A DNA stretch of 64,000 nucleotides from Buxus sempervirens. Taxonomy: Eukaryota; Streptophyta; Magnoliopsida; Buxales; Buxaceae. Made by a program: the position numbers and the translations under genes. Positions 25,076-52,053 of this stretch are shown here, one piece after another. Where the stretch lies: contig OX387185.1 of assembly GCA_947561395.2 (NCBI GenBank), forward strand, positions 30,918,213 to 30,982,212, read 5' to 3'. Position 1 is the first letter of the stretch. Every line of letters begins with the position of its first letter. The notes under the pieces were generated by a model. It saw only the letters and a program-made list of their open reading frames with translations, had not been told where the DNA came from and searched no databases.

Positions 25076-27668
25076 TATCACGCCCCGGAACCAAGCCTGC
25101 CCCTCCAAGGCACAACTCGTTCCAGACCGTGGCAAGTGGGCCATTACTCTTAACAAAACACAAAGGAATTTAAAACTTTTTCATAATGAGTGCAGGTGCA
25201 ACAGTTTATACATGTGCATATCAAAAGTGTGATCATATATACATTTGAGATGAAATAGAACATGAGAGTTTAGTTATAAAAGACGGGTGACTAGTCACTC
25301 CTCTCAATGTATAGGGCCACAGTTCAAAACTATACAAGTATAACAAAAGAAAATCCTAAGGCCTGTAATAGTCTTCTTCTCTATACCCGATGGCCTTTTC
25401 CTTTCCTTTATCCCCAGCCCGGTCCTTCACACCAGACGTCGATGGATCTGAAAAATACGATAGATAACAACTATGGGACAAATGTCTCAGTAAACAACAC
25501 ATGCATGATTCGATAAAGCACAGTTCATGTAAATATTTCTCGATGAAACCATGACATGCGGGTAATTTTAATACTATAAAATCCACGGCATCTCATGTGT
25601 CATACAGTAGTGTATGCATGTGCTTTAGTGTACAGTTCATCAATTTATAACAATTGTAATCAATAAACATTATAATAAATGTAATGGATCTCAAGCTTGC
25701 GTGGAGGATACGAGTTCTCTATCTCCAGGCCAGGGTGAACACAGATCCACTACCCCCAACCGAGATGAATTGATCCATCTACCCACCAAGACTTACTGAT
25801 GTGGAAGAGCTTGTTCAATACCCCCAAATTGAGGTGAACCCTGGTTCACTACCCCCAATTGAGGTGAATAGCATACATTGCCAATCAATATTCTCTGTCA
25901 TGAGGAAGCCAGTTCACTACCACCAATTGAGGTGAACGGCATATATTGCTTACCGATATTTACTCTTGTCAAGGAGCTAGTTCACTACGCCCAGATTGAG
26001 GTGAACAATGGTTCACTACCCCCAATTGAGGGGAACTGCACATATAAAATGTCACACAAATAGACCAATGCCCTAAATACAACTCATCAACTTCTAGGTT
26101 ATTGCCTTTCATATATTTCATGTTAAATGTGGGGCCGAAGCCCAGCAGGTCAATAATACTCAATGTCCTTGGGCCACTACCCTTTTTGTCTCATGGTTCG
26201 GATAATGGGCCAAAGCCCTTGAGGTGGTACAAATGTTGTACGGGCCTATGCCCTTTATCTCGTGGGTCACATATTAGGCCGAAGCCCATAATTCCAGGTG
26301 TGGTACACTCAACTTGGTATTCAAGGGTAAAAGTTTGGTTACCAGAGTTTTCTACTCTTCTTGACTCATTTTGGGCAACCTATGCCTCAACTCTTTTGAT
26401 ACTTGTATATCTCAATCTTGGTTCTTGATTTCTACTTCTAATGGTTAATTTTCAAGTGTTTGAGGTGGTAGGATCAAGTTATCATATTTCTATAGTATTC
26501 TGGGACAGAAAACCTCTCTAAGACCTTTGGGAAAACGTACCCAAAATCTTGGTTATTTGGAATTTTGAGTTACTTCCAGTTGGAACACCTTCTAAACACC
26601 TAACTTTCACTTACCCATAGGTTGGATTTGAATAAAATCAAAGGGTGGTTCAATCTGGGCTAAAAGTGTAAATTTTTTGAAATTTTGGTAGGGGCGCTCG
26701 ATTCGTCGCTCGAATCGACTTCGAGTGACTTCAATTTTTGCTCTCGAGTTCTTTGTTAAAACAGGGTGCTAGAACCGTCACTCTAGCAGCCATGACTTAA
26801 AACTCTATCTAAGGCTACTCAACACTACTGCCTGATGACCGCTTGAGCGGCTAGGTTTTCTCAGCAGCTCGTGAAATCCGATTTTTGGTGATTTGGGGTT
26901 TTTCTCAAATCTGACTTGTTCTAGGTGTTTTTGGGCTTGAAATCACTCCTAGCATGTGTAGAAACTTGTTACCTACAAAACCCCTCAAAGAAAACTCTCC
27001 TATTGGCCCTAGGACTCGTTTTCACATCTCAATCCTAACATTCATCTAACATGCGAAAAATGGCCGAAATCGCGAAATAAGGGTTGGGGTGGTTACCTCT
27101 TGCAAACTCTTTAGCAAGCTTCCTAGATCCCTTTGCAAGCCACGAACAGAACTTTGCTTGCCTCTTGGATGATTCCTTCGAAAATCTCCACCAAAAACCC
27201 CAAACGAGAATGGCTTCTCTTTGGTTCTTCTTTTCTTTTCTTGCTAACTACTCCTCCAATGGTTTGGAATAGGATGGAGGACGAAAATGGGGGAAGAATG
27301 AAAAGAAGGAGATGAGTGTGGGAGAAAAGAGAAGAGGGAAAGGGTTTTGGTCGAATGGGGGGGGGGGGGGGTGTTGGTCGTGAATGGGTTTTCCTCTTGG
27401 CTATTTTCACTTAAGTGACTTCCATAGGCACGAATTATTACAGCTTCGCCACTCCTTCCTCCTACTTGCACGTGGCACCAACACTTAGCAAATTTTCTCA
27501 CCATATGAAATCTCATGTAACCAAATGACAGATACTCACCTTCTTAGGCTATTGACAGCCCGGAGCTTAGCCACTTTGACTGGCTTTAGGCTTGAGCTTC
27601 TCCAGCTTCACCTACACATCAAGCTCATGAATTAGGGTATGCTAAGGATATTGGAATGGGGTGTCACA
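25076..27668 (-). repeat. 5' LTR of Tekay element
   Basis: About 2.59 kb. In element sense it shows a consensus 5' splice site (AAG|GTGAGT, intron from 27539), a CpG-rich array (26690-26870), palindromic minisatellites (25740-26290), a stem-loop (25474-25489) and a 3' splice site (TTTTTCAG|AT, intron to 25448). A short second exon follows, ending in YREEDYYRP and stop at 25356. A G run of about 15 lies at 27357-27371. Confidence 0.9.
25448..27539 (-). other. Putative LTR-resident intron, Tekay 5' LTR
   Basis: The borders are AAG|GTGAGTATCT and TTTTTCAG|ATCC, length about 2.09 kb. Equivalent borders occur in the LTRs at 33443, 35959, 46897 and 48618. This is a sequence-based inference without transcript evidence. 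Confidence 0.5.
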
Positions 27669-29789
27669 CTGGATCTCCCCCATTTGCCCTCTAAAACTTC
27701 TAGATTTACTCCAATGCCTTAAGCTTGAATTGGAAGAATCTAGAAGGGTATTTAGGCATACCCTTGGGTCTTTTCTACCCTTGGCTATGCCTATAAATAA
27801 AGTGCCTCTCCTCTTGCAAATGGTTGATAATCTAAAGTTTGAAGAGCTCTTGAAGAAGAAGAGAAACTCTTCCTAACTCTCCACTCAAGCACTCAAGCAA
27901 CCAAGGTGAGCTTCTAAGCTTTACTCTTCATTTCTATTTAATTTTCAAGCATTCTCTCCTTCTACCTTTTTGTAGATAAGGCCATGGCTGTGTTTGGAAC
28001 CCTGAACCATGCTTAAAGTACCTTAAGCACCCTCTCTAACCGTAAAATGTGAAGAGAGAGCTAGGGGAAACAAGTTTTGGAATGGAACCTTAGGCTTAGA
28101 ACCACTTTTGGATGAATTAATTGCATGATTTGCTTATATTTGTATGTGATTACCGTTTGGGCTTATTTTGAGTTTAATTCTGGAGGAATTACATAGATCT
28201 ATGCTCTCTATAGCATAGATATCAATTCTCTCCTCAAAAATCTGATTTCCTACACAATTCTATGCACACATCACTTGGTTTTCTTTTTATAGCAAAATAG
28301 GCTTTAATATAAGATCTACTACGCTCAATATAGTAGATTTGAGATCATTGGCCTTAGAACAATTTCTCAAAACTTTGTGAGTTGATTTTAAGTGGTTTTA
28401 ATCTTCTAGAGAGGACCTCATGGTCTAATCTCTCTTGTTTGAGCTTTTTTTGCACCAATTTGGGTAACTTTGGCTCATTATCTCTGATTAATGAGAGTTT
28501 CGAGCCAGATCCATGGCCAAAATCTTTCTAAGTGTTTTTCAACTTAGTTCAAGTGATTTCAAATCAAATCACATGAGTCAAGCACACTGTTTTGGCTTGA
28601 TTTCCACTCAATTCTACAAATCTGGACTGAACCTGTACCCTGTCTTGAATCATTCATAACTTCGTCATATGGATGGATTTTTGAATGATTCCAGAGACAT
28701 GTGATAAGTGAAGATGTCTAGTTTAATCTTGTAAAATTTTAGCAATTTATATGGAGCCGATTTTTCAAACCATTTGATTAAAGTTGACAAGTTAGATCAT
28801 ATCAGATTGCTGTACTTGTCACTTTGATTAAGCACTTAGATTTGAATGCTTTCAATTTCTGAGTAACTCTATGAGTCTAATTTCAAATCCAAGTGGTTTC
28901 ATGAATTTTCATTTTAATTTGAGTTCTGTGTGCTTGATTGACTTTGAACTACTCAGTAGTAGATTATAGAGTCGATTTGTGATCCTCTAAGCATGTTTGA
29001 GAGAGTACACAAACCACAAATGGATGAAGTTTTGTGTGAGGCCTATGCTATTTGAAATATGGAACCTCATACTTCATTCATACCAATTTTCAACAATTTA
29101 TATGGAGCCAATCTCCACGAATGGGCTTTCAAAGTTGGCTACTCACCGCTTTTGCAGTTTTACAACAGCAACTTTGAACAAGTGTATTTTCTTGGATTGC
29201 AATCGGATTTAATTGAAATTTTCACTGAGTCTTCTAGTTCATATAAGCTCTCAAATGGCTTTGGGTTCACTCAATTTTAGTTTGAATTGAATGACTTATG
29301 ATTGGTTGAGTTTTCCAAGCTTAAATGGTTTGATTTTGAGTTGATTTTTCCATATTTACTTTAGTCTGCTTTTCTTCAAGTTTTACTTTGATTTTTACTT
29401 GATCATGAAGTCCTAGAGGTGATATATCCATAGAGAGAGTCCAGAATCTATTGGACTACTCATATGGAGGAATCACACATTTATTTGTTTACTTTACTTA
29501 CTTTTTAAGTGATTTTTGTATACAAGCACTTTTCAAGCATGAATAGCATATGACAACCACTTTGTGTGGATGAGTAAAGATGCCTAACACCTTCCCCTAC
29601 TCATAACCTAACCCCTTACCCAATCTCTAGACAAGACCATATAGTAGAGCTATTTAAGCTCTATTATGTTCTTTTTATGCTCATTTTGGTGTCCATTCAC
29701 ACCTTAAACATGAATGGTGGCTACTCCATAATTAGTATGATTTCGTGTGATGATCCAGAGATCACTTAGGTGATTTTCCATGTCTCACA
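27669..29789 (+). repeat. 5' LTR of second Tat element (part right of Tekay)
   Basis: Ends in ATGTCTCACA followed by the primer site. Its TATA box is at 27792-27799 (TATAAATA), with a 5' splice site CAACCAAG|GTGAGC at 27905/27906. The sequence is alike to the minus-strand LTR at 53627-55822. The LTR start is displaced by the Tekay insertion (see 14787-14981). No coding frame. Confidence 0.82.
27792..27799 (+). promoter_or_regulatory. TATA box of second Tat LTR
   Basis: TATAAATA, about 107 bases before a consensus 5' splice site. Position matches those of the sister Tat LTRs. Confidence 0.6.
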
Positions 29790-29791
29790 AC

Positions 29792-29810
29792 TGGTGACTC
29801 CCCTGGGGAC
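29792..29810 (+). other. Primer binding site, tRNA-Arg type (second Tat element)
   Basis: TGGTGACTCCCCTGGGGAC lies two bases after the LTR. It is the tRNA-Arg primer complement with a few changes from that at 13111-13128. Confidence 0.8.
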
Positions 29811-30417
29811 TAGTAGATCAAAGCCATGACATGCTTGTGTTCTTTTTGTTTTGTTTGTTTGCTGTTTTCCTTCATCATGATGGTATGTTCTTCTGTTTGG
29901 TATTGAATGACATGTAAGTCATAAGAATGTGATGAATGTGATGTATATGTTTGGTTGTGTTTAGAACCATGTTTAAGAGGGTTGTCTTGTCAAAACATGC
30001 TTGATTGCCTTGTTTTCATGATAACACGTTTTGGTTTGGATTTCTAATGTCATGTGTTGATAATGAGTATGATGAGCATGAGATCTGAATGTTTGGTGGA
30101 TGTTTTGAATAATTCAAGCATGTTCTCCATGATTGATTGCCTTTTTGTATAAACATGACAACATGCTTACATGATTGTATGATTTTTCCATGAATATATG
30201 ATTAACATGAGCATGCTTAGGTGATTTCTATTATCTTGTTTTACTTGTGTTTATCTATTTCAAATGTGATCTCTATATCATGCCTTGGTGAATGTGAATG
30301 TGAATATGAATATGCATGGCTACGAAAAATAGTGACAAGGATGGGACGTTGTGATGAATGTGACCTACTTTTCAAATGCACTTGTGCACTTTTTCATTTT
30401 TTTACACAGCTTACCTA

Positions 30418-30600
30418 TCACCTATAGGAATTTGAACCCAAATGTGTGTAGCTTGGCGCACCGAGGTCGTTAGTTCAGAAAGCGAAAGTGAAAACATTCA
30501 CCTTAGAGCTTTGAGCTAATGATGTGATGCCATTATGGATCTTTGATTCTGGTCATACACTAGGCTTGAGATCTAAGTTGCCATTAAGCCAAAACCCAAA
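30418..30600 (+). other. Conserved Tat leader block, second copy
   Basis: Close match to the reverse complement of 12426-12612, in the same place relative to primer site and hairpin array. Confidence 0.75.
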
Positions 30601-31437
30601 AACCCTTACGCTTGAAGGTGGAGAAACACGTTTTTGGACAAAGTAAACCATTACGATGGGAAATTGGGTTTGTAATTGAGGGAAGGCCGTTTTGCTTGGT
30701 TCTAAGGCCCAAGGTATGATATGGATACCATATTGAAGGTAAACAAAAGGTAACAAGGTAATTTCATTTTTTATTTTAGAATTGCCTTCATACTTTGTAA
30801 AGTAAGATCCATGGTGTCCATGTGTTTGGGATTGTATTTTTCCCAAGGAGATGTTGTACCCTAAGATTGGTGTGGCCTATAGGAGGAGTTTTTATTCTTC
30901 TTAGAAGTCATTCTACCCAAATTCCTATAGGAGGCAACCTAATGTCCAAAATCCATACATGTGGTGTCCTATTTTGGAGGGAGCATATGCCCTCTTCTGT
31001 GTAAATAGTAAAAATCCTCTTTTTGTAGGAAATTTGAAGAAAAAGACACCCAAAGAAGAGATGGTACAGGAGGCATTATTTACGTCTAGTTTGGGAACAT
31101 TATTTTCCTTTGAAATCCCAAGAAGGCAAAGTTGTAATTTTATTTCAGCCCTTGAAAGCACATTTGTATTTTATCCCTTTCTTTCATATGCTTATCTCTC
31201 TATTGAAGGCATGAGAAGTCTTTGTACATATTTGTTATATACTTTTTTTTATTAATTTCATAAGGTTCATTGGTCTTCATGCACTTTTTGTAATAATTCA
31301 AATGTCAAAGTCCAATTTTGGGACAGTTCAGAAGCCACCCAATGGTGAACAGTGAGTTTGAACAAGCAATCAAACTAATAAAATCAATTGGGAAAGCAAA
31401 AATTTAAAAATCTATTTTTAAGCATAAAACTGCCCTG

Positions 31438-31533
31438 AGTATACGGATTTAAGGTGCCCGTAATCATTATACGAACATAACCTGTCCGTAATATATATAC
31501 AGGCATGGCAAATCCGGACTGAGTATACGGATT
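31438..31533 (+). repeat. Degenerate TACGG hairpin array, second Tat leader
   Basis: Repeats of TATACGGATTTA, GCCCGTAAT and GTCCGTAAT type. This is a decayed counterpart of 11773-11910 in the same position of the leader. Confidence 0.6.
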
Positions 31534-32154
31534 TAGGCTTAAATTGAACTTAAGCAAATTTAACAAGCAGATTTGCATCCTTTTAATCTGTAAATGATAC
31601 ATAAAGATAATAAACACTTCAGTGAGGGTAAATAGCATGCAAATCCTACCAATCTCATCAAAATCAAAAGGTTAAGCCCACTTTAGGTATTATTTCACCT
31701 AATTTGAGCATTTAACTTAACTTAAGGGTGCAAATGATAAAAGAAAAATCTGTTTGAATCAAAACCAACTCACACACTTCAATTTTAGGAATTGAACATG
31801 AAATCATAACAAGGTTTCAGAAAATGTTTTGAACCTAACTTTTGAAGTGTAATTCAATTTGAGAATGTTGAAAAAGGAGTTCAAATCATTTTATCCCCAA
31901 AGTTTGATAAGAGCACTCCAATTTAAAAATCTGTTTTTAAATATAAAAGCATTTAAAACTTTTAAAAGACTTCTTTTAAAGAACAATTTGGTTATCAAAC
32001 CATAGGTCTTTTGGGAACCTTGGAATCCCAAATGGGTCACTTGGAAACCATTGAATTCCAAGCAAATGAAAAACCCAAAAATCAGAAATAAAAAGGAAGA
32101 AGAAAGATTTAAAATCAACTCCTTTAAAACAATTTGATTTCCTTTTCAACTCAA

Positions 32155-33000
32155 AAGCTTTAAAGAAAATTCAAAAAATCACGGGCCATCTGAAAACCTT
32201 TAAATTTCAAATTTTCTTCAAAATTTCCATAGGCCTCTGAAAGCCTTTGAATTTCAGATTTTTAACTTATAGGCACCTGAAAGCCTTTCAATTTCAGAAA
32301 TTCAATTCATGGGACAACTGAAGGCCTTGAAAAACTTCAGATTTCATAGGTCACCAATAGCCTTTGAATTTTAAATCTTCATAAGCCCTAGGGGAGCTTG
32401 AGTAATTCCCTAACCTCGTAGGCCCTCTAAAGCCTTAATTTAGAAATTCATAGGATGGCTGGAAGCCTGAAATTCCAGATTTTTCAAATCGTCATAGGCC
32501 CTTGGAAGCCTGAGTATTTCCAAGAAATTTGCATAGGCCTAAGGAAGCTTGCTAATTCCCTAACTCATAGGATGGTTGGAAGCCTGAAATTCTAGATTTT
32601 TAAAAAACTTCATAAGCCCTTGGAAGCTTGCGTTAATTCCAAGAAATCTTCATAGGCATAAGGAAGCCTGCGTAATTCCTTAACTCATAGGACCTCTGAA
32701 AGCCTGAAATTTCAGAATTTTATCTTCATAAGCCTCTAGAAGCTTGCGTGATTCTAGAAACCCTTCATAGGCCTCTGAAAGCCTACGTAATTTCAGAAGG
32801 TTCTTGGAAACCTTAATTTCAAATTCATAGGCCCCTGAAAGCTTGCATAGTTTCAGGAGGCTTTGGAAGCCTTAATTCCAAATTCATAAGCCCTTGGAAG
32901 CTTGAGTAATTCCAAGACAATTCATGATTTGTCTAAAAGCTTTTATTTTAGGCATTTCATATCTAGTGGGACATGTTAGAAGCCCTAAAATATTCCAACA
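32155..33000 (+). repeat. Decayed hairpin minisatellite, second Tat leader
   Basis: About 20 diverged units of CATAGGCCTCTGAAAGCCT(TTGAATTTCAG) type, in the same leader position as 10829-11648. Units have drifted, but the GGAAGCC/GAAAGCCT core and the CAGA half remain. Confidence 0.8.
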
Positions 33001-33442
33001 ATTCTTTTGGATGGTCTTTTGGGTACCAACCAACTTCCTTTAAGAAGGTTGATTTCAACCAAATCCAAAAAGCACAAAAAAATAAATAAAAGCATTCCAA
33101 ACTCATGTTCACTTAATTTGCATACATGCATTCATAGGTGTGTGAATATGATTTAGATTAATACTAATATATCTCTTTTTCTTTTTCTTAATCAAGGTTT
33201 TCGGCTACCTGCAACCATTGCTCCCAGGTGCTCTCTGAGATTAAGGACTACCATTATGAATCCTACAGAGAACCAATCAACTATTTTTGCACAGGACTTT
33301 GTTCAGCTGCAAGAACAAGTGTCCGGGCTTGCCAAAATGTTGGAGACCTTGTTGACTACCCAAGCCCAGCAAGCTCAAGCTTAGAACCAAGCCTGCTCTT
33401 CCTACCAAGAACCTCCACCTCAGACCAACATACTGCCACAAC

Positions 33443-35828
33443 TATAAAATCCCAAATTTTAGAAATAAATAAAATTAATTATTAAAAGGGCTAATTGGGT
33501 TAATAATATATAGGAGATGAGATATTGGTTCAAACCAGAGGAGTTCAAAGTGAACCGAAGGAAATTAGGGAACCTATCTAAGGTAAGAGCATGATTTTGG
33601 ATTAGGTATAAATTTTAATTTAATGATTGGTTAATGCTGTAGGATGTAATTGATAAAAAGAAAAATATAAAGAATAAAAGAGTTGGTCGAACCCTAAAGG
33701 AAGTGGGTTGACCCAGAATTAGTTTGGTCTGGGGTTAGAGGCTTGATTGTAAATAGGTGTAATGAAGGGAGGGTATTTAAGTAAAAGACTCTTAAACTAT
33801 TAAAATAACCTAATATATATATATATATATATGCATGAGTTAAACACATCCAACTCTAAGAGAAGAATTAGCCGCACGTTTCATATTTCTATTTCCTCAA
33901 TTCTTCTTTCCTCTTTCAAAGCTTAAACCCTAGTACTCAAGCACTTGTTGGAGCCGTCTTACAGAAGGAAAAAGGAGAATTTTCGTTCAGTAAAACCCAG
34001 GTAAGATCAAACTATAAAAGAAGTTCTGTTTTTGGGGGTTAAGCATGATCATGTGTTCTTAAAAGGGTGTGTTTTGATCCAGACGAGATCAAGGAGTTGC
34101 GGGGCTCGTTTGGAATAGTTTGGGGTGATATTGAGTTGCTTTTAGAGGAGGTTTGAGTTCCAAAAAACAAGTAAGTAGTCCCTTGACGCTTGCATAAAAT
34201 ACAAATTTGTGTTTAGACGATATACGTGGTTAATCGGTGATTTGATGTGTTGTTTTTGGTTATTTATGATGTTTTAATTGTTGGGAATTGTTCTAGCATG
34301 TTTATAAAGTGTTTTAGAATGATTTATAGTGGTTTTGATTCATTGAATATTGAGTTGTGGGATTTTTGTTGAATTTTGCAAAGTTACGGATTTTACACGT
34401 ATCGGGCCGCTTGAGTAGTCGCTCAAGTGCCCTATGTATTTATTCCAAAACCCGAGAGCAATTTTACCCAGATTGAACTGTCACTAGAACAGTCGCTCGA
34501 ACGACCTATCGAGCGATCTCCCCTGAAACAACCTATTGTGTAAGGCTGATCGAGCAACCAGTCTGTCAGATTTTTGGAAATTGGCTTTTCAACCTAGCTT
34601 TTCACTACGGAAGTGTTTTTATCCAATTTTAACCTATGTACCATCAAGATTGGGGTATTTGGGAATTGTTTGCACTGGCGGATGTTTAAAATTCAATTTT
34701 ATAAAGATTTTGGGTAGATTTTTCCAAAGAGGCACTTCTACTTGATACCATTATTCCAAACAATTCTATTCTTAACCAAACTTGATTTTAAGAGTTCCTA
34801 CATCTGTATTTGGACTATCTGGACATGTTTTGAGTGCCGAATGATGTTACATATGCCCAAATTATTTTGCCCATTGAAACCGTGTGATATATATACATAT
34901 TTAACTCCACTGGTGGGGGTTTTTGGGTCACAGTTGTGACAAGGCAGCTGCTTGGTTTATTATTTCCGCAAGGCGGATTTGGTTATTTGTTTATCCTAAT
35001 CCGTGTACTCGGTGGGATACTTCCTTATTCATGTACTCGGTGGGAAGGTGGTTATTTGTTTATCCTAATCCGTGTACTTGGTGGGATACTTCCTAATTCG
35101 TGTACTCAGTGGGAAGATGGTTTATTTGGTTATCTTAATCCATGTACTCGGTGGGAAGATAGTTATTGGTTTATCCTAATCCGTGTACTCGGTGGGATGA
35201 ATGTTATGTGGTGGTTGTTGCCTTTTATCATCAATTCGTGTACTCGGCAAGATGTTTCATTGTGGTTGTATTTCTATGCCACCATGCTTGGATTTATGTT
35301 TCATTGTAATTGAAATCATGTGATTAGTCGGATTAAGCATTGTATATTTTATTGTGGTTAACTATTTGCATGACTACTTACTGAGATGTTGTTTCTCACA
35401 TTATCGTTTTATTGGTTTTGTTTTCAGATATTCCTGGTGAGGACGATTGCAGGGGATACACACTTCTGGGGATTACAATGAGTACTAGGAAGAAGATTAC
35501 TTTATTCCTGTATAGGTTTAGGGATTTACATTATTAAATTTGACTTAATATTGGAAGAATGGTTTCAGATTACTTTTATTTAGATGGCATGGGTGAGGTA
35601 CATTTTATTCTAGTTAACCCTTTTCAGACTTAGTTGAGGAATTGGTAATTGGATTTTTCTTTAGTATCCCGCGCTTCTTGAAAGAAAAGAAAATTTTATT
35701 ATTACTTCCGCACTCTGATTATATCAAATGAAATTGTGTAAGTCTGGATTAGTTATTTTGGGCCCTTACTCTAACGTTCTAGGGTCGGGTTTATGTTCTT
35801 AAATAAACCTGGATCTGGGGCGTTACAA
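33443..35828 (+). repeat. Solo LTR C (chromovirus type)
   Basis: About 2.39 kb, TATAAAATCCC ... GGGGCGTTACA, flanked by the perfect 5-bp duplication ACAAC (33438-33442 and 35829-35833). It holds an AT microsatellite (33810-33832), a 5' splice site CCCAG|GTAAGA at 34000/34001 and a CpG-rich array (34395-34560). A 7-copy TGTACTCGGTGGGA minisatellite (34997-35255), a stem-loop (35382-35398) and TTTTCAG|AT at 35427/35428 follow. It presumably arose by LTR-LTR recombination. Reading frames over the minisatellite are repeat translations, not genes. Confidence 0.9.
34001..35427 (+). other. Putative LTR-resident intron, solo LTR C
   Basis: The borders are CCCAG|GTAAGATC and GTTTTCAG|ATATTCC, length 1427. 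It encloses the CpG-rich array and the minisatellite. Inference from consensus signals and conserved position. Confidence 0.5.
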
Positions 35829-35958: not shown

Positions 35959-36116
35959 TGTAACGACCTAGAACCAGGCCTACCTCTCCAAGGCACAAAC
36001 CCGTCCCCGGTCGTCACAAGTTGGTCTTTTGACCTAATATAATGTGGATAATTTAAAATTTTGTTTTCCTGGAACAAATGGAATTGATATACAGTTCATG
36101 CTTGTGCGTATCAAAA

Positions 36117-36163
<47 letters not shown>

Positions 36164-38656
36164 AAGTATAACAACTTGAGATAATACAAGAAATAGGTAT
36201 CTAGTCACTCCTCTTAGTTGGAAGGTTTACAAGTCCAAAAGAAATATACAACTATCATGTACAAGAAAATAAACATCCTAATTAGGCCGGTAATAGTCTT
36301 CCTCTCTATACCTTGGTGCCTTGTCCTTTCCTTTTCCCCAATCCGGTCCTTCACATTGGACGTCGACAGCTCTGAAAATAAGATGATAAAATAACTGGCG
36401 TGATGAATGTCTCAGTAAACAACACATGTATGCTAGATAAAAACACAATTGATGCCACTATACTTCGGTAAATCGGTGCTCAGGTGTACAAGTCATTTCA
36501 TTACTTCACAAACACACATCAAATCTTGTCACTTTATTATTTAGGTGGTTTATTATATATTGCCCATGACATCATCTAGTTTCACAAATTTCTCATGGTG
36601 GCTAGGCATCCAACGCTGATTATCCTTGACGTTAGGCATTCATACGCCGATTACCCTTGACGTATGAGAATCCATGCTGATTCCCCGTAGCAATGGGCAT
36701 CAGCCACCGATGTTGCTTGGTGCCGGAATGATAAAAGATGATACAACGTAACATAACAACTTGGTCATGGCATTATACATAAACACAACCCACTTAAGAC
36801 CTATGGATCCATAACTTAAGACTGTTCATTATGCAAGTATTCGTTTGCTCATCATACAAGATATCTCACAATTCCAAGCTTTTGTGGAGGATGCTAGTTC
36901 ACTACCCTCAACTGGGGTGAACCGCACACACTACCCACCGATACTCACTTTGTAGAGGATGCTAGTTCACTATCCTTAACTGAGGTGAACCGCACACTCT
37001 ACCCACCAATACTCACTTTGTGGAGGATGCTAGTTCACTACCCTCAACTGGGGTGAACCACACACACTACCCACCAATACTATCATACCAAAGGTTATCA
37101 ATTGGGCCAATGCCCTTTATATCATGCTACAAATAATGGGCCAATGCCCTTCATGTCATGCAATTCAATATGGGCCAATGCCCTTCATATCATATGCCAA
37201 ATACTGGGCCAATGCCCTTCATATCATGTATTGCATGTTTTTGAGCAATTAACAAAAACAATTCATGCTTATGGAAAGAAATCATTTATTTATCATATAC
37301 TACTTGGGCAACCTCGGCCCCAACTCATTGGAAACATACACAACCTTAATTATGCTTTGGTTTCCTACTTCCAAGGATCAGTTGGAAAGTGTTCCAAGTG
37401 GTAGAATCAAATTATCCCACTTTTATAAGAATCTGGAATGCAAACTCTCTAGGAATCCTATTTCAGTAGAATGTACCCAAAATCTTTGTTATTTGGAATT
37501 TTGAGATAATTCCAGTGTGTACACTTCTTAGATACCTAAATCCTATTTGTACATTGGTTGGATTCAAATAAAAACAATCTGTAGTTTGATTTGTGCTAAA
37601 ATCCAAAATTTCTTAAATTCTGCCAAGGATGCTTGAAGGCGCGCTCGAGCGTTGCTTCGGGCTCTCGGCCAAACCAAAATTTCAACTCTCGGGTTTTGAT
37701 TTCTAAAAAAACACAGGCGGGGCACTCGATAGGGCGCTTGAGCTCCAATGGGCGGCCTCGCCTTAATTAAGTTTTTGAATGGGCGCTTGAGATCTCGCTC
37801 GAGCGACACTTCGAGCGCCTTGGAGATTTCTCAGGTCGCGAAATTTCTGAAAATTTGTGATTTCTAGGTTTTCTTCAATCTCACTCATTTCTGTGGTTTT
37901 TAGTCTCTAAATTGTCTCTATCATGTGTGGTTACCTATTACACATAAAACCCTTAACATATGCACCTCCTATTTGCAAGGAAATCAAATTTGTACTCAAA
38001 CCCCCAAATCTCAACATTGCATATGAAAATGGGGAAAAACGAAAATCTAGGTTAGGGTGGTGTTGCTTACCTCTTCTAAGCAACCAAGTAAGTCTTCTTG
38101 CTCCTACTGCAACCCATGAGCAGCACTCCTTGTGCCTTTTTAGTTGCTTCCTTCACCAATCCTCCAAGCTTTCTCCAATGAGCAAACCACCCTAAATGAA
38201 AATCCAAGGTTCTACTCCTCCCTCATAATGACACCCACCCCAAAAAGGAAATGGGAGAGAAGATGAGAGTGGAGAGGAGAAGTGAGTGTAGAAGAGAAGA
38301 AAGTAGAAGAAGGAGATGAAGAGAAGGGAGTTTGTTTCAATCGTATGGGGCAAAAACCCCCTTCTTAGGCACTTAAGACACTTCTCCTTTCCCAATTTTA
38401 CCCTTCTCCCATCAACCGTTAATATTTCCACTTTGCCACTCCTCCTATTGTACACACAACAAATCACCACTTAGCCATTTTTCGTCTCAATGATTACATT
38501 TATTTAATAATCTCGGGATTACTTACCTTTACACATTACTCACGAGCTTAGACTTAGCCACTTGGCTGGCTTCAAGTCTAGGCTTCTCCCGCTTCACCTT
38601 CACAATAATTACACAATTTAGAGTTTGCTAATCATCTAGGAATCTGGGGTTTCACA
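35959..38656 (-). repeat. Solo LTR D (Tekay-like)
   Basis: About 2.70 kb, flanked by the perfect duplication TCTGG (35954-35958 and 38657-38661). It is a diverged relative of the Tekay LTR, sharing ACCCAAAATCTT-GTTATTTGGAATTTTGAG. Contents: an AT microsatellite (36124-36161), three copies of a roughly 68-bp TTCACTACCCTCAACTGGGGTGAAC repeat (36893-37075), four copies of a roughly 37-bp GGGCCAATGCCC palindrome repeat (37105-37230) and a CGCTCGAGCG array (37620-37830). In element sense the splice-type borders are AAAG|GTAAGT (38527/38526) and TTTTCAG|AG (36372/36371), followed by an exon ending YREEDYYRPN and stop (36278). Confidence 0.9.
36372..38526 (-). other. Putative LTR-resident intron, solo LTR D
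   Basis: The borders are AAAG|GTAAGTAATC and TATTTTCAG|AGC, length about 2.16 kb. Homologous in position to the Tekay LTR intron. Confidence 0.5.
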
Positions 38657-42246: not shown

Positions 42247-42251
42247 GGGAT

Positions 42252-42606: not shown

Positions 42607-42608
42607 AA

Positions 42609-42622
42609 TGGTATCAGAGCCT
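42609..42622 (+). other. Cassandra primer binding site, tRNA-iMet
   Basis: TGGTATCAGAGCCT lies two bases after the left LTR and matches the consensus complement of initiator tRNA-Met. Confidence 0.92.
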
Positions 42623-42674
42623 GCCCCGACCGGAAGGTGTGGGGGTTCGGCCCAACGCGAGGACGCGTTGTCCC

Positions 42675-42687
42675 ATGGAGGGGAGTA
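42675..42687 (+). other. Cassandra polypurine tract
   Basis: ATGGAGGGGAGTA abuts the right LTR, as expected for the plus-strand primer. Confidence 0.85.
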
Positions 42688-44261: not shown

Positions 44262-44420
44262 ACGCGGTGAACAATGCGCTGACCTCAGGCGCTCGGCGCG
44301 AGGTCAGCGCGATCTCGGCGGAACCACAAAAACAACAGAAAAAGACGCCCGGCGCGAGCTCGGCGGACACAAAATCGCCCGGCACGAGCTCAGCATAAGC
44401 TCGGCGAGAGCTCAACGCAC
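44262..44420 (-). repeat. GGCGCGAGCTCGGCG palindromic array in LTR G
   Basis: Contains a palindrome with 10-bp arms (CGCTGACCTC/GAGGTCAGCG) followed by four diverged CGCCCGGCGCGAGCTC units. A 34-base block (44274-44307) matches 47745-47778 of LTR A with three mismatches. Confidence 0.8.
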
Positions 44421-44496
44421 GCCCTTGACGAAACACGATCGTCTGTTTTTTTTGAAACTCAGAGACTGGCTTGCTTTCCAATCTCTGTAACACCTT

Positions 44497-45259
44497 TTTA
44501 TTTTTTCTGGAAATTAAGAAGGTACGATTAAATAAAAGGAAGTATGTACAAAGTAGATAGTGGGCATACCCACCAAGCACAACAAGGAGCAGCCACGCTC
44601 AAACTATAGTAAACACGATACAATCAAGCCTATGAGAAATTAATACTGAAGAAGACCCCCATCCTTAGATAAAAGTACAATTTAGATCCCATTTTTGCAT
44701 AACCTGCCTATGATAACTATTATCACTAAGCACTAATGGAGTACCTGTCACTCTGTTGTGGATGTCCTGGTATACGAACTTACAAATCTCCTCTTCAGGC
44801 AAGGCAGAGTTCTTAAATACCCTTCAATTTCTCTCACACCATATGTGATACACAGCCGCAGCCAAGGACAAGTGCTTTAGAAGGTGTAAGGGAGACTTAG
44901 AGCACCATGCTCGAGCACCATACTCAACCATATGGTCCCAAGAGAGAATAGGAGTCATAGTGTTAAGACCGTTCCTGATCATAAGAGTTCTCCAAACCTG
45001 TCTACCATAGTCACACTGGAAAAAAAGGTGTTCAATGGTTTCATTATACTTGCGACAAAAGACACATACCGCATTATGTATGATACCCCACCTGTTGAGC
45101 CTGTCTTTAGTCAGGAGAGCTCTCTTAATTGCAAGCCATGTCACGAATGAATGCTTGGGGATGTTGGTTGAAAACCAAACCAATCTCGCCCAAGCAACGG
45201 AAGACCGACTAGTCTCCAAGGCTTTATAGGTGATGTAGGTTCCAGTGTGGAAGACCGAC
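44497..45259 (-). mobile_element. Strongly 5'-truncated L1-type LINE in LTR G
   Basis: About 0.76 kb with a T-rich left end, flanked by the perfect 17-base duplication AATCTCTGTAACACCTT (44480-44496 and 45260-45276). Encodes the C-terminal LINE zinc region (CVFCRKYNETIEHLFFQCDY) and AVYHIWCERN. A TGA at 44824-44826 then falls where Trp is expected before RVFKN. It inserted after LTR G. Confidence 0.93.
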
Positions 45260-46678
45260 TAATCTCTGTAACACCTTCCCGGTGCTCCTTAGACTCCTAG
45301 AAGACGTCTAAACACAACTTGAAATTAAACTAAACTAACTTCACATTGCGACTCAAAATCTCTTCGCTGACATCCCAAATCCGAAAATCAAACAGAATAT
45401 GACTAACGAAGGGAAGAGGGGGTTTACATCGGGGTACAACAGATGAAATGGCCGTGGGAAACATGCTCCCTCCTTCGAATAAGACAAACAATAGCAGCGA
45501 GATGAAGCAAAACCATTTCGGATATCCTTAAAACATTTCCATTTTCATGTATATGAAATAACAAATTGTAGGAAACATTACCGTGGGGTTTAGGAACCCT
45601 AGAGGTGTGCGATTCACACTCTTGGATGCAAAGCAATGGTTGGAGCACCTTCTTTCATGTACCGACCGTGAGTCCTCCTTCGGATTCAATGAGAAAAGAA
45701 GAGGAAACGAAAAGCCGAGGGTGGAAGGGGCTTACGGTGATGTTGGGTGGTTCGAGGGAGCAAGGAGAGGTGAGGGAGAAGGGTTTCGAACCAAGCAAGG
45801 TGGGGAAGACAGGGTTGTCGCCGGCGACCAAAAAGCTAACTGAAGAGGAGCTAAACTCCCTGGGGGAAGAGAGACAACCAACGAAGGAAAAGCCCCCCAA
45901 CCCAGAAAGAAAAAAAAGCCAACCCAAAAAGGCCGAACAAGAAAGATCCAACCAAGAAAAGGCCAACCCTTTGCAAGAGGGTTGCCGTGGCTTTTATAGG
46001 AGAAAAATTGGGTGTTCGCCGGGTTGGCGCCGAGCTGGCGCCGAGTAGCTGGAGCTCAGCGCGAGTGACCTAATGATTAAAGAAATTCAATTCGGCCGCT
46101 GATTTGTCTGGAAAATCTGAAATTTACAGATCTAGTCCCTGGACATTTTTTATTTAATCCGATACACTTGGATATTCACAGATTTAGTCCCTGAGATATT
46201 TTCTTAACTTTTGATATTTATGGATTTAGTCCCTGAGATATTTTCCTGCGCCACTTGCTACATGTGCAGCTCTTTCCCACGTGTGCAGTTTGCCGGTTTT
46301 GCTGCTCGGAAATTTTGACAGCTTATATCTTCTTCATCCGGACTCCGATCTGGGCAAACTCAGTTGCGTTAGAACCATATCGGAGTCCTCTATCGAATGG
46401 GATGGGGTTAAACACCTGGTTCGGGGTTTAGCAGAAAGTCAACTTTCGGCTCCCCCTCAAGCAAAACCGGCCTGCAGAACCTTTATCCGGACTCCGATTC
46501 CAGCAAGCCCAGTAGCGTTGGAGCCGTGTCGAGATTCTCTATCCATTGAGATATAACAAGGTAGCCAATTATCACTTGATCAAAAAGTCAATTTTCGTCC
46601 CCTCAGGGTTTGACTTTTCCGCCAGGGTTTTCATTTTCATCACTTCCAGGGGTGCAAAAATAAGGTGCTTACAAACAC

Positions 46679-46896
46679 CATTTGTTTTCTTTTCAAATGC
46701 GTATGGCATATAAGTGATGTTATGCCCTTATAATAGAACAAAGAGACAAGGAGATTTGAGAAAAAAAAATGACAAAAGCAGATAGCACAGTTATCTCCTA
46801 CCTTTGAAATCTAGGTGGCAATTTTTAGAAAACCATAATTCCTTACCTGATAAATAAATCCAAAATATCAAATTGATTTCATATTGAAGCAAGTAC
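46679..46896. other. Unrecognised strip of oldest layer
   Basis: AT-rich sequence between the target duplications of LTR G and LTR A. No gene, repeat or element end seen. It is contiguous with 43048-43082 and 52054-52727 if the insertions are ignored. Confidence 0.5.
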
Positions 46897-48823
46897 TATA
46901 AAACCCCGAATTTTCTACATGATTTTTTATTGGAAAAATAAAATTAATAAGCTGTGTGTATGTAGGGAAACTTGGTGGGCGAGCGTTGCACCGAATCCAG
47001 TTGATTTAAAACTCGTCGAGCGGCAAAGTATGTATAGTAAGTATAAATACTTAAAGAAGTTAGACTCGTAGGTTTTCGTTCTCGCATACTTTGTGTTGAA
47101 GGCGATTTCGGCTGGTGATCTAGGGTTTTGGAGAGAAGCAAACCTTGTGTTCCTACTGATCGGAGTTCTTAGAATCAAGTTGTTCAAGGAAAACCTATTG
47201 CGAACTGAAGGAGAACTAGGTGACGATCGACTGTTGGTTTTGCTGTACTAGGAGTTGCCGTTGCAAAGTTTTTGGAGCGTATAACTGTGAGTAGCATCGT
47301 TTTGATTTTATGGTGGGTTTTGATCCCTGAGATTAGTTGGAAGCATGTTTTCTGAATAATTTATTTGTCGAGCGCGAGTTATTTGATGGGTTTAGAGTCG
47401 TGATTATAAAGTTGTTTAGATTAAATCCGAAACGTGTTTAACAGTGTTTTGGTAATGGTAGAAGCATAGATGAGTAGTTACAGAGGTAAAAAATACAGCC
47501 AGTCATGGATTTCTGAGATTAACAAAGAGTCGTGAGTCGGAGGTAGTGTCCGCTGACTTGGTGCCTACCTAGCACCAAGTGGTAGAGTCAGCGCAAGTTA
47601 TAGTATGTTGTTCTCGCCGAGTTCGCGCTCAGCTCGCGCCAACCGCACGCGAAGTATATTTTAGTCTCGCCGAGTTCGGGCTTGTCTCGCTATAAGTCAT
47701 TTTAGTTTGCACGAGATGCTGATTTCGTATACGCCGAGTCCATGCCGACCTCGCGCCAAGCGCCAGAGGTCAGCGCATCCAATAAAAATCTGCCGAAAGT
47801 GTTTTTGACCAATCCAAGCCAATTTTTGATATTTTGAGACTTAAACCTCTTACCCAAAGGCTAGATTAGGATATTAGAAATATTATATCTGTTCAAAACC
47901 ATTGGGAGAGCCTTAAATCAAATTTTGGGTATTTATATAGGTTTCTGAAGTGGGAATTGAAAGAATCTGGGTAGGTTTACTGATCAAGACACTATAAACT
48001 AATGAGATTGTCTTTGCTATGTATTATATTTGTTTTCTAGTTATGAATCTATTTAATCTGGATTTGTTTGATATCAAAGGGTTGAATAGTATTGTAAAAT
48101 TTCTTGTGTGAGTAAAAGGATTTTTCTGCTAATGAGGTTTGTGTTTTGGGGTTGGGATACCTACTGAAATTATATGAGTTGCTATTCTGGTTGGAATGAC
48201 TTGTGATGAGTGTATTGGATACACATGATGGTAATTAGTGTGGGGTTATTGTTTTGCAACTACTAAGTTTTGTGAACTTGTTAATTTGGTTTTGGGTTTA
48301 GCTTCCCTTGGATCCATGTTAAGCTTAGTAATGTGATGATATTGTTTGTTGGGGTAATTGCATGGCCTAGCGGGTTGCCACGACCGGGTTAGAGCAGCCA
48401 GATACCCTGAGTAGGCCTAGTTGTCAATGCCGATACCCGGAGTAGGCTGGCATTGGATGACGATACCCTGAGTAGGCCGTCATTTCAGAATGTCCGATAC
48501 CCTAAGTAGGCCGGAACTGTGTACATGGAGGTGTGGAGTGTCTCCTTGGCATGTGAATTAACCAACTTAAGCAATATGAATGATATTGACCTTTCGTTGT
48601 TTTATCGGTATTGTGGTTGTAACGCCCCAGATCCGAGTCACGAAATAACACCGTAACTCATCCCCGGAGGTTAATTTAAAACACAGGATCACAATATCAG
48701 AGTGAAGCAAAAACATGAATACAACAATAGCTATATAACAGAGTGCGCTAAAATATTCCCAAACTAAAATAAAACTCACATGTCCAAGTAACTACCTGCA
48801 AGTATCGAGCTCTCCAAGAGTAT

Positions 48824-50825
48824 CTGAAAACAAAACAAAAGCAACGGGGTGAGATACGAATATCCCAGTGAGCAGCACATGCATGCACAAATACATTTAG
48901 TTCAGTTCTAAAACATGCCACGATTACAAACCATATACAACGATGATAACACGTATAACCCAACAAAACTTCAACATTCCAATTTACATCCGTGAGGAAA
49001 ACCATCGTATAAACCAAGCAGAAAAGACGGTATCAAATCATGCATATAGCCGTAAAGTCACGTATAACCAGTTAACAATATATCGAAGAAATCATAGTTC
49101 AACAACTCAAAAGATATAACTCGGGTCCCAACCCGTATCAATAATAAAGTCACATCATAACCAATGCCCACGCCTCCCAATGTATATCCGGCCTACTCAG
49201 GGTTTCGGATATTGAAATGACAGCATCATCCAATGCCGGCCTACTCCGGGTATCGACATTGACAACACCATACCACTCAGGGTCATGATGCTGCTCTACA
49301 CTGGCGGGAGGTACAATACCCAATAATCGGTAAACAATATTCCATGAACCATAAATACCAACAAACCAGCGAATAAAACATATCACGTCAAACAAAATCA
49401 AATACCAACATTAGTCAATGTCATGTAGTTGCTTAGATTGGTTAATCTACATGCCAGAGCGACATCCACACCTCCATGTACACAGTTCCGGCCTACTCAG
49501 GGTATCGGACACTCTGAAATGACGGCCTACTCAGGGTATCGTCATCCAATGCCGGCCTACTCCGGGTATCGGCATCGACAACCAGGCCTACTCAGGGTTT
49601 CTGGCTGCTCTACACTGGTCGTGGCAACACTCCATGGCCATGCCATTACACCAATAAAACAAAATACATCACATTACTAAGCTTAGACTCTGAATCCAGG
49701 ACAAGCTAAACCAAAATCTATAAATAACCAAATAAAACTCCGCATTCAGTACACATATCACAAGTTGTTCCAACCAGAACATCAACTCACACAAGTGTTC
49801 CAACCAGAACAGTAATTCCTCACAAGTGTTCCAACCAGAACAGTAATTCCTCACAAGTGTTCCAACCAGAACAGTAATTCTTCACAAGTGTTCCAACCAG
49901 AACATCATCTCACAAGTGTTCCAACCAGAACAAATAATTCCTCACAAGTGTTCCAACCAGAACAATAACTCTTCACAAGTAGACAAGTAAATAATCTTTG
50001 CCCATCAAGAAAACAGGGTTTAATAAAAACTAAATCAAGTCTAGTATGTAACCCAAAAAGAACTAAAATAAAAACCCAGTGTTGGGTATCCAGAACATCA
50101 CCTAAAATGTTGCCCTACATTTACCTTGGAAGCTCTTAAGAAATTCCAGAATCTATCTTCAATGTTCTCATAAGTAATTTTGTCTCTAATGTTCTAAACA
50201 AGTACTTTGCTAAGTGATCGAAGACCTTCTAGCATCAAACTCCCCATTGGTTTACTCAATTATGAAATTTAGTAAGAAAAGTGGACTATGCGATCACCTC
50301 CTGAGGTAGGCGCGAGGTGGGAGGATAGTATAATAGCAACAATCAGGGTATGCGCTCACTCGATGGTAAGTGGGCACGAGAAGGGCGTGAAGTGGGCGCG
50401 AGAAGGGCGCGGGGTAGGCGCGAGAAAGGCGTGGAATATTTAAGTGGGTGCGAGAAGGGCACGGGATAGGCGCGAGAAAGGAGCCAAGTCTATTTTTCCA
50501 TGTGCCTACTTCCCGAAGTGGGCGCCAAGAGGGCGGATACCCACTGTGTTTTTCAAGTCTCTGTTGAATCCAAATCTTCAACTCTGGCCGAAATTTTTCA
50601 GTCTGTAACCACTTCTCTGGTCTCCTAATACCCCCAGAACACATTCAAACCTATTTTGAAATTAATCTAACACACTTTTCAATTATCCCCAATTTGTTAT
50701 ACAGAAAACCCTTCGGAATATCTTCGCCCAGAAACCCAGTGAATAATTCATTCGACAACCATGTGCATTCATTCAAACAAAAACTACGAATAACATAAAC
50801 CAGGTTTTAAAACAGTGCCACTCAC
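48824..50825 (-). other. Putative LTR-resident intron, solo LTR B
   Basis: The borders are AAAAG|GTGAGTGG and GTTTTCAG|ATACTC, length about 2.0 kb. The second exon here lacks the YREEDYY-type ending. Confidence 0.45.
49765..49990 (-). repeat. Minisatellite in LTR B, single-copy in LTR A
   Basis: Seven copies of about 30 bp with core TCACAAGTGTTCCAACCAGA. The corresponding place in LTR A (about 48185-48215) has one copy, so the array expanded in the B lineage. Confidence 0.85.
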
Positions 50826-52053
50826 CTTTTATGCTTCCAAGTCTTGGCAACAGCAACCCAAAAAATCCCCAATCACTTCGGCCGTCTGCTTGCTCTGGTC
50901 GAACAGAGGTTTTCTGAAGGAAGAAAAGCCCTTCCGAACTTCTTATTAGCAAAAACTTACTGGCAGTAAGTCTTCCCCAGCTCGACTCTCCCACAGAACC
51001 TCTCCAACTCCTTCTCTCGAAGAACCCTAAACAAAAGCCGCAGCCGCAACCTTCTCAGTAAACTATACGCGTATTCAGGGCAAAAACCCAAAACCTAATT
51101 TCTTAAAGTATTTATACCTTCTGCAAATATGCTTGCTGCTCGATGACCCTTTTAACTCTGATATGGTGTGTGCTCGCCCACCAAAACCCCTACATTAGCA
51201 CCTTCCAATTTATAATAAATTTCAAACACACTATTATCAATTTCTTTAAACCAATATTTGATGCCTGTTTAACTTAATTTAAAATCTTCATAATTTAGGC
51301 TTGGGAAATTCCGAGACTACCCTCACTTGTTCCAACACCGAACCGCCAAAATCCAAATCCATGGAAGTCCAATAACCAAAATTTCCTATTTTAATAATTC
51401 ATCCTATTTAACATTTTGAAATTAACTCTAATTAATTTCCTTTTCTCTGTTTCTAAAGTTCTCCATTAATTAAATAAGTGTTAAAAGCGTAAAATCTAAA
51501 TTTTAATGTTATTAAAATTCGGGATTTTACAGTGGTTGATATTTGATGTGAACTAATATTAGACTTCTGGATTTCCATCTCGTATTTATCGCTATTGATG
51601 TATTGGTGTTGGTTATTTATCGGTGCATACTTTATAACTGTGGTTAACTATTTCTGCATGCATGTGCTACTCGCTGAGATATTCGTATCTCATTCCTTTG
51701 TTTTTGTTTTGATTTTCAGATATTCGTGGTGAGGCGCTTACGAGAGTAGATCCGACTGACACATATAGGGAGCAAGATTATTACTACAATCCATAGACTA
51801 GTAGGTTTAATTTTAGATTGAAACTTTGACTCATTTGATTTTGGGAAATGTAATAAAGTAGTTGATATGGATTCGTTTGGCTTTACTTAAAGATTATTTT
51901 GGACGTCTTAGATAAGAATTTAATTGTGCACTCTGATATGGTATTAATTGCGTGATTATCCAGCGATCACATTTATTTTGGATCCTTACCTAACCCTCTG
52001 TGAGACGTGTTATATCTTTAATGAATAACACGGATCCAGGGCGTTACAAGTAC

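What the first reader, a model, noticed from the sequence alone, without database searches (positions are those of the whole stretch)
25448..51719. Chromovirus-type LTRs built as promoter-exon-intron-exon cassettes
Five LTRs of several diverged families each have one consensus 5' splice site shortly after the promoter region and one TTTTCAG 3' splice site 240-530 bases before the LTR end. Tekay 5' LTR: AAG|GTGAGT 27540/27539 to 25448. LTR C: CAG|GTAAGA 34000/34001 to 35427. LTR D: AAAG|GTAAGT 38527/38526 to 36372. LTR A: ACT|GTGAGT 47286/47287 to 51719. LTR B: AAAAG|GTGAGT 50826/50825 to 48824. LTR E shows the 3' half only (61951). The intron bodies are not alike between families, but the borders and their placement are. 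A solo LTR would then still be a transcription unit with its own intron. I do not know of a description of this architecture.
Basis: partly seen in the sequence, partly recalled or inferred. Interest (0 to 1): 0.75.

Follow-up and report, generated by a model that had tools for sequence, protein, structure and literature searches.

The report
Retrotransposon LTRs with built-in splice sites
The long repeats at the ends of this plant's chromovirus retrotransposons carry conserved splice sites, apparently so that splicing turns the element's RNA into a messenger while cutting out the signals needed to copy it back into DNA.

Summary
All five LTRs carry the TTTTCAG acceptor, each LTR's best-scoring one. 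The donors given for A and B stand. In C the given donor opens an ~82-nt first intron; the main donor is 34171. In Tekay and D the given donors lie near the LTR start; the most conserved donor is ~450 b further in (27096, 38070).

In copies from the same plant genome (676 Mb) the ~250 nt before these donors are nearly free of ATG (T/D: 18 against 151.5 expected), the intron side is not; GTA, however, is equally rare there. Exon 1 looks like a 5' UTR. In Tekay its natural partner is an acceptor 4 nt before the gag ATG (AG in 21 of 21 rows): 51 upstream ATGs fall to 0, but only to 19 with the LTR's own acceptor. The LTR acceptor starts an exon that, in T/D, codes a conserved C-terminal peptide; a donor at the end of pol fits its phase.

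Best model: a three-exon gene whose introns hold PBS and PPT. There is no RNA evidence, and 6 of 17 elements have a stop just before the pol donor.

The parts
25076..27668 (-). 5' LTR of the Tekay-type chromovirus (T5)
   Evidence: termini, PBS behind it, second LTR at 14982-19728
14982..19728 (-). 3' LTR of the same element (T3), interrupted by a LINE fragment with poly-A
   Evidence: RVT_1 in the insert
27097..27346 (-). predicted exon 1 (5' UTR) in T5; left edge approximate
   Evidence: 0 ATG in its last 200 nt; in 36 T/D loci ATG is scarce from -250 to -1
27091..27096 (-). donor of intron 1 in T5 (GTAACC here; GTAAGC in relatives)
24524..24530 (-). acceptor ATTTCAG ending 4 nt before the gag ATG (24519-24517)
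   Evidence: AG in 21 of 21 rows
19763..19768 (-). donor at the pol end, CAA G|GTAAAT, phase 1, just after the chromodomain
   Evidence: GT in 14 of 17 elements; 6 of 17 have a stop just before it
25448..25454 (-). acceptor TTTTCAG in T5
15354..15360 (-). acceptor TTTTCAG in T3, predicted to be used with the pol-end donor
15262..15353 (-). predicted coding part of exon 3 in T3, in phase 1: PSMSGVKDRAGDEGKEKAIGYREEDYYRP*
   Evidence: pN/pS 0.29 in this frame for T/D copies
33443..35827 (+). solo LTR C, target duplication ACAAC
   Evidence: ATGs lie mainly in it
34171..34176 (+). main donor GTAAGT of LTR C
   Evidence: 19 of 21 rows
35421..35427 (+). acceptor TTTTCAG of LTR C
35959..38656 (-). 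solo LTR D, target duplication TCTGG
38065..38070 (-). conserved donor GTAAGC of LTR D
   Evidence: GTAAGC in 34 of 38 T/D loci
36372..36378 (-). acceptor TTTTCAG of LTR D (tail frame broken in this copy)
46897..52048 (+). solo LTR A, target duplication AGTAC, interrupted by LTR B
47287..47292 (+). donor GTGAGT of LTR A; TATAAATA at 47042
   Evidence: same donor block in L184-L188; copies of A itself were not tested at the donor
51713..51719 (+). acceptor TTTTCAG of LTR A, followed in phase 1 by IRGEALTRVDPTDTYREQDYYYNP*
48618..51531 (-). solo LTR B nested in LTR A, target duplication GTGGT
50820..50825 (-). donor GTGAGT of LTR B; TATAAATA 291 b upstream
   Evidence: 19 of 20 rows
48824..48830 (-). 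acceptor TTTTCAG of LTR B (only a short frame TLGELDTCR* follows)
   Evidence: 20 of 20 copies
61627..64000 (-). 3' part of LTR E with acceptor at 61951, followed in phase 1 by PGEDDIPGVEPDADYPEYRGEDFFVE*

Best explanation
These are LTRs of Tekay-type chromoviruses built as three-exon plant genes whose first and last exons lie in the two LTRs. Exon 1 is a 5' UTR poor in ATG in the 5' LTR. Its donor is spliced to an acceptor just before the gag ATG, removing the rest of the LTR, the PBS and tens of upstream ATGs (intron 1; LTR C has an extra ~82-nt intron first). Exon 2 is gag-pol. A donor just after the chromodomain is spliced, in phase, to TTTTCAG in the 3' LTR (intron 2, holding the PPT and U3), adding a C-terminal tail of about 25-30 residues, the stop and the 3' end. 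Spliced RNA is the mRNA but lacks PBS and PPT and cannot be copied; unspliced RNA is the genome. In a solo LTR the two half-introns face each other and look like one intron. Shown here: conservation of the sites, scarcity of ATG in exon 1, coding signature of the tail exon in T/D, the gag acceptor in Tekay. Inferred: actual splicing, the pairings, the mRNA/genome division.
For: Donors: B 19 of 20, C 19 of 21 rows, T/D 34 of 38 loci, and 9 of 11 further LTRs found through pol ends. ATG before the donor: T/D 18 against 151.5 expected in 36 loci, with the opposite-strand word CAT at 216 against 150.1; B 12 against 81.5, C 40 against 97; past the T/D donor ATG returns at once (1.78 times expectation in the first 50 nt). 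In C the ATGs sit mainly in the mini-intron (35 in 1,685 nt) rather than in the exon parts (11 in 2,927 nt). In B, 8 of 19 copies have an unrelated promoter-exon-1 segment (identity 0.59-0.64, shuffled 0.54-0.60) before the same intron (0.80-0.96); in 5 of the 8 similarity begins at the GT itself. Gag acceptor AG in 21 of 21 rows. Upstream ATGs in the window's Tekay: 51 unspliced, 19 with LTR-internal splicing, 0 with exon 1 to gag. Tail exon in T/D: pN/pS 0.29 in frame, 0.67 and 1.04 out of frame, bootstrap over codons 0.17-0.46. Pol-end donor in phase 1. No scored place spans a spliced junction: 0 of 40 in each, as expected if spliced RNA is not copied.
Against: No RNA data. The ATG test is not clean: GTA is as rare as ATG in T/D exon 1 (21 against 151.5) and other words of the same letters stand at 0.61-0.74; ATG is also scarce 200-300 nt into the T/D intron (0.11, 0.32) and at -350 to -301 in B, upstream of TATA (0.05); in the two swapped B modules CAT is about as low as ATG. 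Many neighbouring columns are as conserved as the donor GT (32 of 159 T/D, 73 of 161 B, 58 of 159 C columns). In 6 of 17 elements a stop stands just before the pol-end GT, yet three LTRs of that class keep an intact tail frame (L184, L186, L188), one has it with an inner stop (L185), in one it was not found (L187). The tail frame is broken in 15 of 20 C copies, 11 of them sharing one stop, and in 8 of 24 T/D rows; A copies give no clear coding signal (0.55 in frame, 0.78 and 0.43 out of frame). Of six pol-linked LTRs without that stop the tail was found by pattern in two (L179; L182, whose LTR is followed by another PBS), not in L178, L180, L181, L183. The gag acceptor was tested only in Tekay-type copies; two C-type loci held no gag. 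Absence of spliced copies also fits no splicing. Introns are T-richer than exon 1 in A, B and C, not in T or D. Copies share descent, so counts are not independent.
Confidence: 0.57

Rival explanations
1. One reading: each LTR splices its own donor to its own acceptor, giving a leader intron inside the LTR in both full elements and solo LTRs, perhaps to boost expression (intron-mediated enhancement, recalled).
For: Donor and acceptor are both conserved inside one LTR; TATAAATA stands 231-300 b before the donor in 18 of 19 B copies and a CT run in 31 of 36 T/D loci.
Against: No strong ATG depletion after the LTR acceptor; 19 upstream ATGs would remain in Tekay; the exon after the acceptor reads as a C-terminal coding exon in T/D. 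No intron-less LTR D in 40 scored places.
Confidence: 0.2
2. Exon 1 and the donor are real (5' UTR spliced to gag), but the TTTTCAG exon is a relic or serves another product; pol ends at its own stop and is not extended by splicing.
For: Stop just before the pol-end GT in 6 of 17 elements; broken tail frames in 15 of 20 C copies; the palindrome beside the GT is kept in lineages without the GT, so the GT may be kept for other reasons.
Against: Purifying selection on the tail frame in T/D, similar YREEDYY-type endings in T, D and A and related ones in C and E, phase 1 fit of the pol-end donor, no upstream coding frame in exon 1.
Confidence: 0.3
3. Chance matches: splice-like words in long AT-rich LTRs, kept by common descent of copies; scarcity of ATG before the donor is a matter of base order.
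For: GTRAG words are frequent; flanks of the donors are also conserved; GTA is as rare as ATG in T/D exon 1.
Against: Donor hexamers stay while the adjoining exon is replaced; CAT on the other strand is not depleted in T/D; ATGs lie mainly in the C mini-intron; acceptor just before gag in 21 of 21 rows.
Confidence: 0.08

Closest known systems
Ogre (Tat lineage) intron between gag-pro and RT-IN
   Same: a plant Ty3/gypsy intron, spliced out of only a subset of transcripts (PMC6317226, passages)
   Different: Ogre's intron is internal and allows translation of the whole polyprotein; here donors and acceptors lie in the LTRs and the introns would hold PBS and PPT
CRM group A chromoviruses
   Same: the coding region ends inside the 3' LTR (CR motif; PMC3059260, passages)
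   Different: that paper does not mention splicing (0 occurrences of 'splic'), and LTRs begin TGATG; here a splice of ~2.3 kb (4.4 kb in the window, with the LINE) is inferred and LTRs begin TGTAA/TGTGA/TATAA
BARE1 (Copia): translated and replicated RNA pools, spliced gag RNA
   Same: splicing helps to set apart RNA for translation (PMC3735527, passages)
   Different: BARE1 removes 104 nt in gag; its pools also differ in promoter and capping
Retroviruses with the main donor in the LTR R region, such as HTLV-1 or foamy virus (recalled, no call)
   Same: a donor inside the 5' LTR
   Different: their acceptors serve env or accessory genes; here gag itself would be the spliced product
Solo-LTR promoters of ta-TRIM in Echinococcus
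   Same: LTR-initiated transcripts spliced to downstream exons (PMC4558846, passages)
   Different: the authors say the donor there may be present by chance; here it is conserved across copies and families

Membership tests
Chromovirus (Ty3/gypsy) | gag, protease, RT, integrase, then chromodomain | tested here: met
   Pfam hits on the window's Tekay ORFs in this order; Chromo is weak, 19.6 bits against cut-off 25.1
Tekay/Del clade | position in an RT tree | not tested
CRM clade | LTR termini TGATG/CATCA | tested here: not met
   starts TGTGA, TGTAA or TATAA, ends TTACA, TGACA or TGATA (definition)
Ogre-type intron element | intron between gag-pro and RT-IN | not tested
   the inferred introns lie at other places; no RNA
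spliced LTR element with intron borders in the LTRs | conserved donor and acceptor in the LTR | tested here: met
spliced LTR element with intron borders in the LTRs | spliced RNA observed | not testable with these tools
   no transcript data held

The most novel reading that the evidence does not exclude
A large plant chromovirus group is organised as a three-exon gene with exon 1 in the 5' LTR and the last coding exon in the 3' LTR, so that splicing cuts out exactly the PBS and the PPT and decides whether an RNA is translated or copied; promoter-exon-1 modules are exchanged between families, in one group with the joint at the donor itself.
Probability: 0.48. Interest if true: 0.82.

Novelty: new variant of a known kind. 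Interest (0 to 1): 0.64.

Why it matters
How plant LTR retrotransposons use one RNA both for translation and for copying is settled for few elements. If the introns hold PBS and PPT, splicing itself is the switch, and ordinary RNA-seq can test it. It would also give a reason for the long LTRs of these families and for the ragged ends of their polyproteins, and would mean that many solo LTRs carry a promoter, a 5' UTR exon and a strong donor that could splice into neighbouring genes. A review of December 2025 says that plant LTR elements generally lack introns, with Ogre and EVADE as notable exceptions (PMC12786077, passages).

Tried and rejected
Exon 1 as coding: rejected, the frame needed for the exon after TTTTCAG has stops close to the donor in many copies. 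Spliced retrocopies as proof of splicing: none in 40 scored places each for D exon 1|LTR exon (386 candidates), Tekay pol|tail (1,183), Tekay exon 1|gag (355); the joints of B and C were asked for and never answered, nor was the A donor region. Gag acceptor in family C: the two loci cut out (L229, L230) hold no long gag frame; a D-type leader (L010) likewise. RNA fold of the pol end: a hairpin, but no excess stability overall (z 0.04).

Literature: searches (titles and abstract starts of the papers listed) showed no description of an LTR-borne intron in a plant chromovirus; only open-licence papers are held. Passages were seen of seven papers; none was read whole.

Rows dropped. Tail-exon test: 21 of 25 T/D, 13 of 16 C and 18 of 21 A copies used (frame-shifted ones left out by asking for motif residues at the expected codons, which favours that frame somewhat); six more C copies fell to the A probe and were not used. 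Pol ends: of 20 windows fetched 12 were used with 5 others; 7 (L159, L160, L161, L163, L164, L165, L170) were set aside by eye as other lineages, although L160 has a chromovirus-like tail with CAG|GTATGT in another phase and L161 has AAG|GTGAAA; L176 was too short; L012 counts as GT with one extra base behind it. C mini-intron: 21 of 25 rows had a donor; 4 of these (L139, L153, L180, L182) had no AG at the expected place and a default was used; L180 was mis-assigned. T/D ATG counts misplaced L015 and left out L001, L002, L008; one search mends this (36 of 38 loci; L007 and L032 without site), and the GTA control there led me to lower my confidence from 0.60 to 0.57 (novel case 0.50 to 0.48).
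Full report
WHERE THIS IS. The window holds a chromovirus with gag (CCHC), protease, RT, integrase, Tf2-type SH3 and a weak chromodomain hit, LTRs T5 and T3, and the solo LTRs A, B, C, D, each with a perfect 5-bp target duplication, plus the 3' part of LTR E. B is nested in A.

THE OBSERVATION. All strings are at the stated places. The acceptor is thus homologous and non-random; the donors need correction.

DONORS IN COPIES. I fetched copies from the same genome. Family B: GTGAGT in 19 of 20 rows. T/D: GTAAGC at the 38070/27096 site in 34 of 38 loci, whose overall matches to the two query LTRs go down to 72%; the window's own Tekay LTRs are decayed here (GTAACC, ATAAGT). Of eleven 3' LTRs found through their pol ends five carry GTGAGT[AG] and four GTAAGTAG[TC]C at the same relative place; one has GTAGGT and one none. 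Mean column conservation is 0.72-0.77 at exon -60..-21, 0.95-1.0 at intron +3..+6, 0.92-0.94 at +7..+16 and 0.79-0.90 at +17..+60; a fifth to nearly a half of the 159-161 columns are as conserved as the GT, so conservation alone is not decisive.

EXON 1 LOOKS LIKE A 5' UTR. The 250 nt before the T/D donor hold 18 ATG where 151.5 are expected, with CAT (the other strand) at 216 against 150.1; the next 250 nt hold 164 ATG against 182.6 (36 of 38 loci). B: 12 against 81.5; C: 40 against 97; ten pol-linked LTRs: 15 against 45.1. Against this reading: GTA is just as rare in T/D exon 1 (21 against 151.5), the other words of the same letters stand at 0.61-0.74, and ATG is scarce again 200-300 nt into the T/D intron. 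GTA could be avoided as a false donor (inference). In B the main module has 3 ATG against 49.7 and CAT 20 against 27.1, but the two other modules are low in both words. In C the ATGs lie mainly between the 34001-type donor and an AG 81-87 nt on: 35 in 1,685 nt, against 11 in 2,927 nt of exon and 121 in 3,150 nt of the main intron. TATAAATA lies 231-300 b before the donor in 18 of 19 B copies, and a CT run of 11 or more lies at -320 to -150 in 31 of 36 T/D loci.

MODULE EXCHANGE. In 8 of 19 B copies the exon-1 stretch (230 nt) is unrelated to the window's (0.59-0.64 identity; shuffled 0.54-0.60), yet the intron that follows is 0.80-0.96 identical; L135 shows the reverse (0.87 and 0.66). In five (L122-type) similarity begins at the GT (query 705-707); in three (L128-type) it begins about 30 nt before it (query 674-677). 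Recombination inside the conserved start of the intron is the simplest cause of the first joint (inference).

THE PARTNER OF EXON 1. In Tekay an acceptor ends 4 nt before the gag ATG: AG in 21 of 21 rows (window plus 20 of 40 listed places), with CTAA about 25-30 nt upstream in all. With exon 1 taken as 250 nt, 51 ATGs precede gag in the unspliced RNA; splicing donor to LTR acceptor leaves 19; splicing donor to gag acceptor leaves 0. ATG is not strongly depleted after the LTR acceptor (B 0.83, C 0.61) or in the leader (1.02). So the gag acceptor is the better partner. I could not test this in A, B, C or D.

THE EXON AFTER TTTTCAG. It is often open in phase 1 for 25-30 codons and then stops. 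Single copies: T5 PSTSGVKDRAGDKGKEKAIGYREEDYYRP*, L034 (D type) LSTSGVKDRIGDRGKDKAPGYREEDFYRPT*, L190 (A) IRGEAPTGVDPTDIYREEDYYYNP*, L101 (C) IPGEDVAGIDTSGDYTEYQEEDYFIPV*, LTR E PGEDDIPGVEPDADYPEYRGEDFFVE*, L179 DTREGDLLDFQGEIAEYSPEDYYYPDLI*; B has only a short end. The frame is whole in 16 of 24 T/D rows, 19 of 21 A rows and 5 of 20 C rows. In T/D pN/pS is 0.29 in this frame, 0.67 and 1.04 in the others, bootstrap 0.17-0.46; C 0.48 against 0.68 and 2.11; A copies are uninformative (0.55 against 0.78 and 0.43), and five A-class LTRs compared between families give 0.45 against 0.68 and 0.62. Exon 1 does not supply the upstream frame. The end of pol could: CAA G|GTAAATTT just after the chromodomain, phase 1, GT in 14 of 17 elements; but in 6 of the 17 a stop stands right before it, although of the five LTRs fetched for that class three keep the tail frame, one has it with an inner stop and in one it was not found. 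L003 and L012 show both the pol-end GT and a whole tail frame in one locus, L003 with a decayed acceptor. So the pol-tail splice is likely for T and D, possible for C and open for the other class.

MODEL AND TEST BY ABSENCE. The element reads as a gene of three exons, with PBS in intron 1 and PPT plus U3 in intron 2. Spliced RNA could not be copied back. No scored place spans a spliced joint: 0 of 40 in each of three searches. This fits the model but also fits no splicing, and only the 40 best candidates are scored.

KNOWN AND NEW. Splicing of plant LTR elements is known for Ogre, BARE1 and others named there, sunflower elements and EVADE. In CRM group A coding runs into the 3' LTR. My nine searches listed no LTR-borne introns described for plant chromoviruses, within an open-licence library only. 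I rate it a new variant of a known kind: splicing that sets apart RNA for translation is known; donors and acceptors placed in the LTRs of a plant chromovirus are not, as far as I saw.

Noticed in passing
window 19747-19765 (-); 2,336 places genome-wide: A palindrome AATTTCGAGGACGAAATTT (8-bp hairpin with AGGA loop) stands between pol and the PPT; 2,336 places with at most 2 mismatches against 4 for the reversed control, also in elements without the pol-end GT. A text search for its core found four papers, none on retrotransposons by title.
   Followed up: partly
27539 and 38526 with T/D copies; 33583 in LTR C: A second AAG|GTRAG word about 130-140 b inside the LTR, upstream of the predicted promoter, kept in most aligned T/D copies; role unknown.
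   Followed up: partly
pol ends L057, L162, L166, L172, L174, L177: A stop codon directly before the pol-end donor in a class whose 3' LTR mostly keeps the tail frame; L162, L166, L172, L174 also have AAG|GTGAGG in the same phase ~50 b upstream.
   Followed up: partly
LTR families B and C genome-wide: Mostly solo LTRs: a PBS-like sequence follows 1 of 20 B and 4 of 20 C LTR ends, and by eye none of the 38 B and C upstream flanks shows a pol end.
   Followed up: partly
3332-10626 (-): Another LTR element with two frames of 1,200 and 1,235 codons; the gag frame carries a G-patch domain.
   Followed up: no
15550-17640 (-) and 55986-61065 (-): LINE fragments, one with a poly-A tract inserted in T3, the other with endonuclease and RT domains.
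   Followed up: no
25729-26059, 36861-37235, 48374-48537, 49172-49628, 34980-35228: The LTR introns hold short tandem repeats that differ between T/D, A/B and C (E resembles C by eye) (and sequence).
   Followed up: no
10866-11612: Tandem arrays of 34/40-nt and ~48-nt units with CTGAAATTCA(A/G)AGGCTTTCAGAGGCCC.
   Followed up: no
L182 (G000:C1:27512770-27516200): A pol end followed by an LTR that is itself followed by a PBS, as in tandem or nested elements.
   Followed up: no
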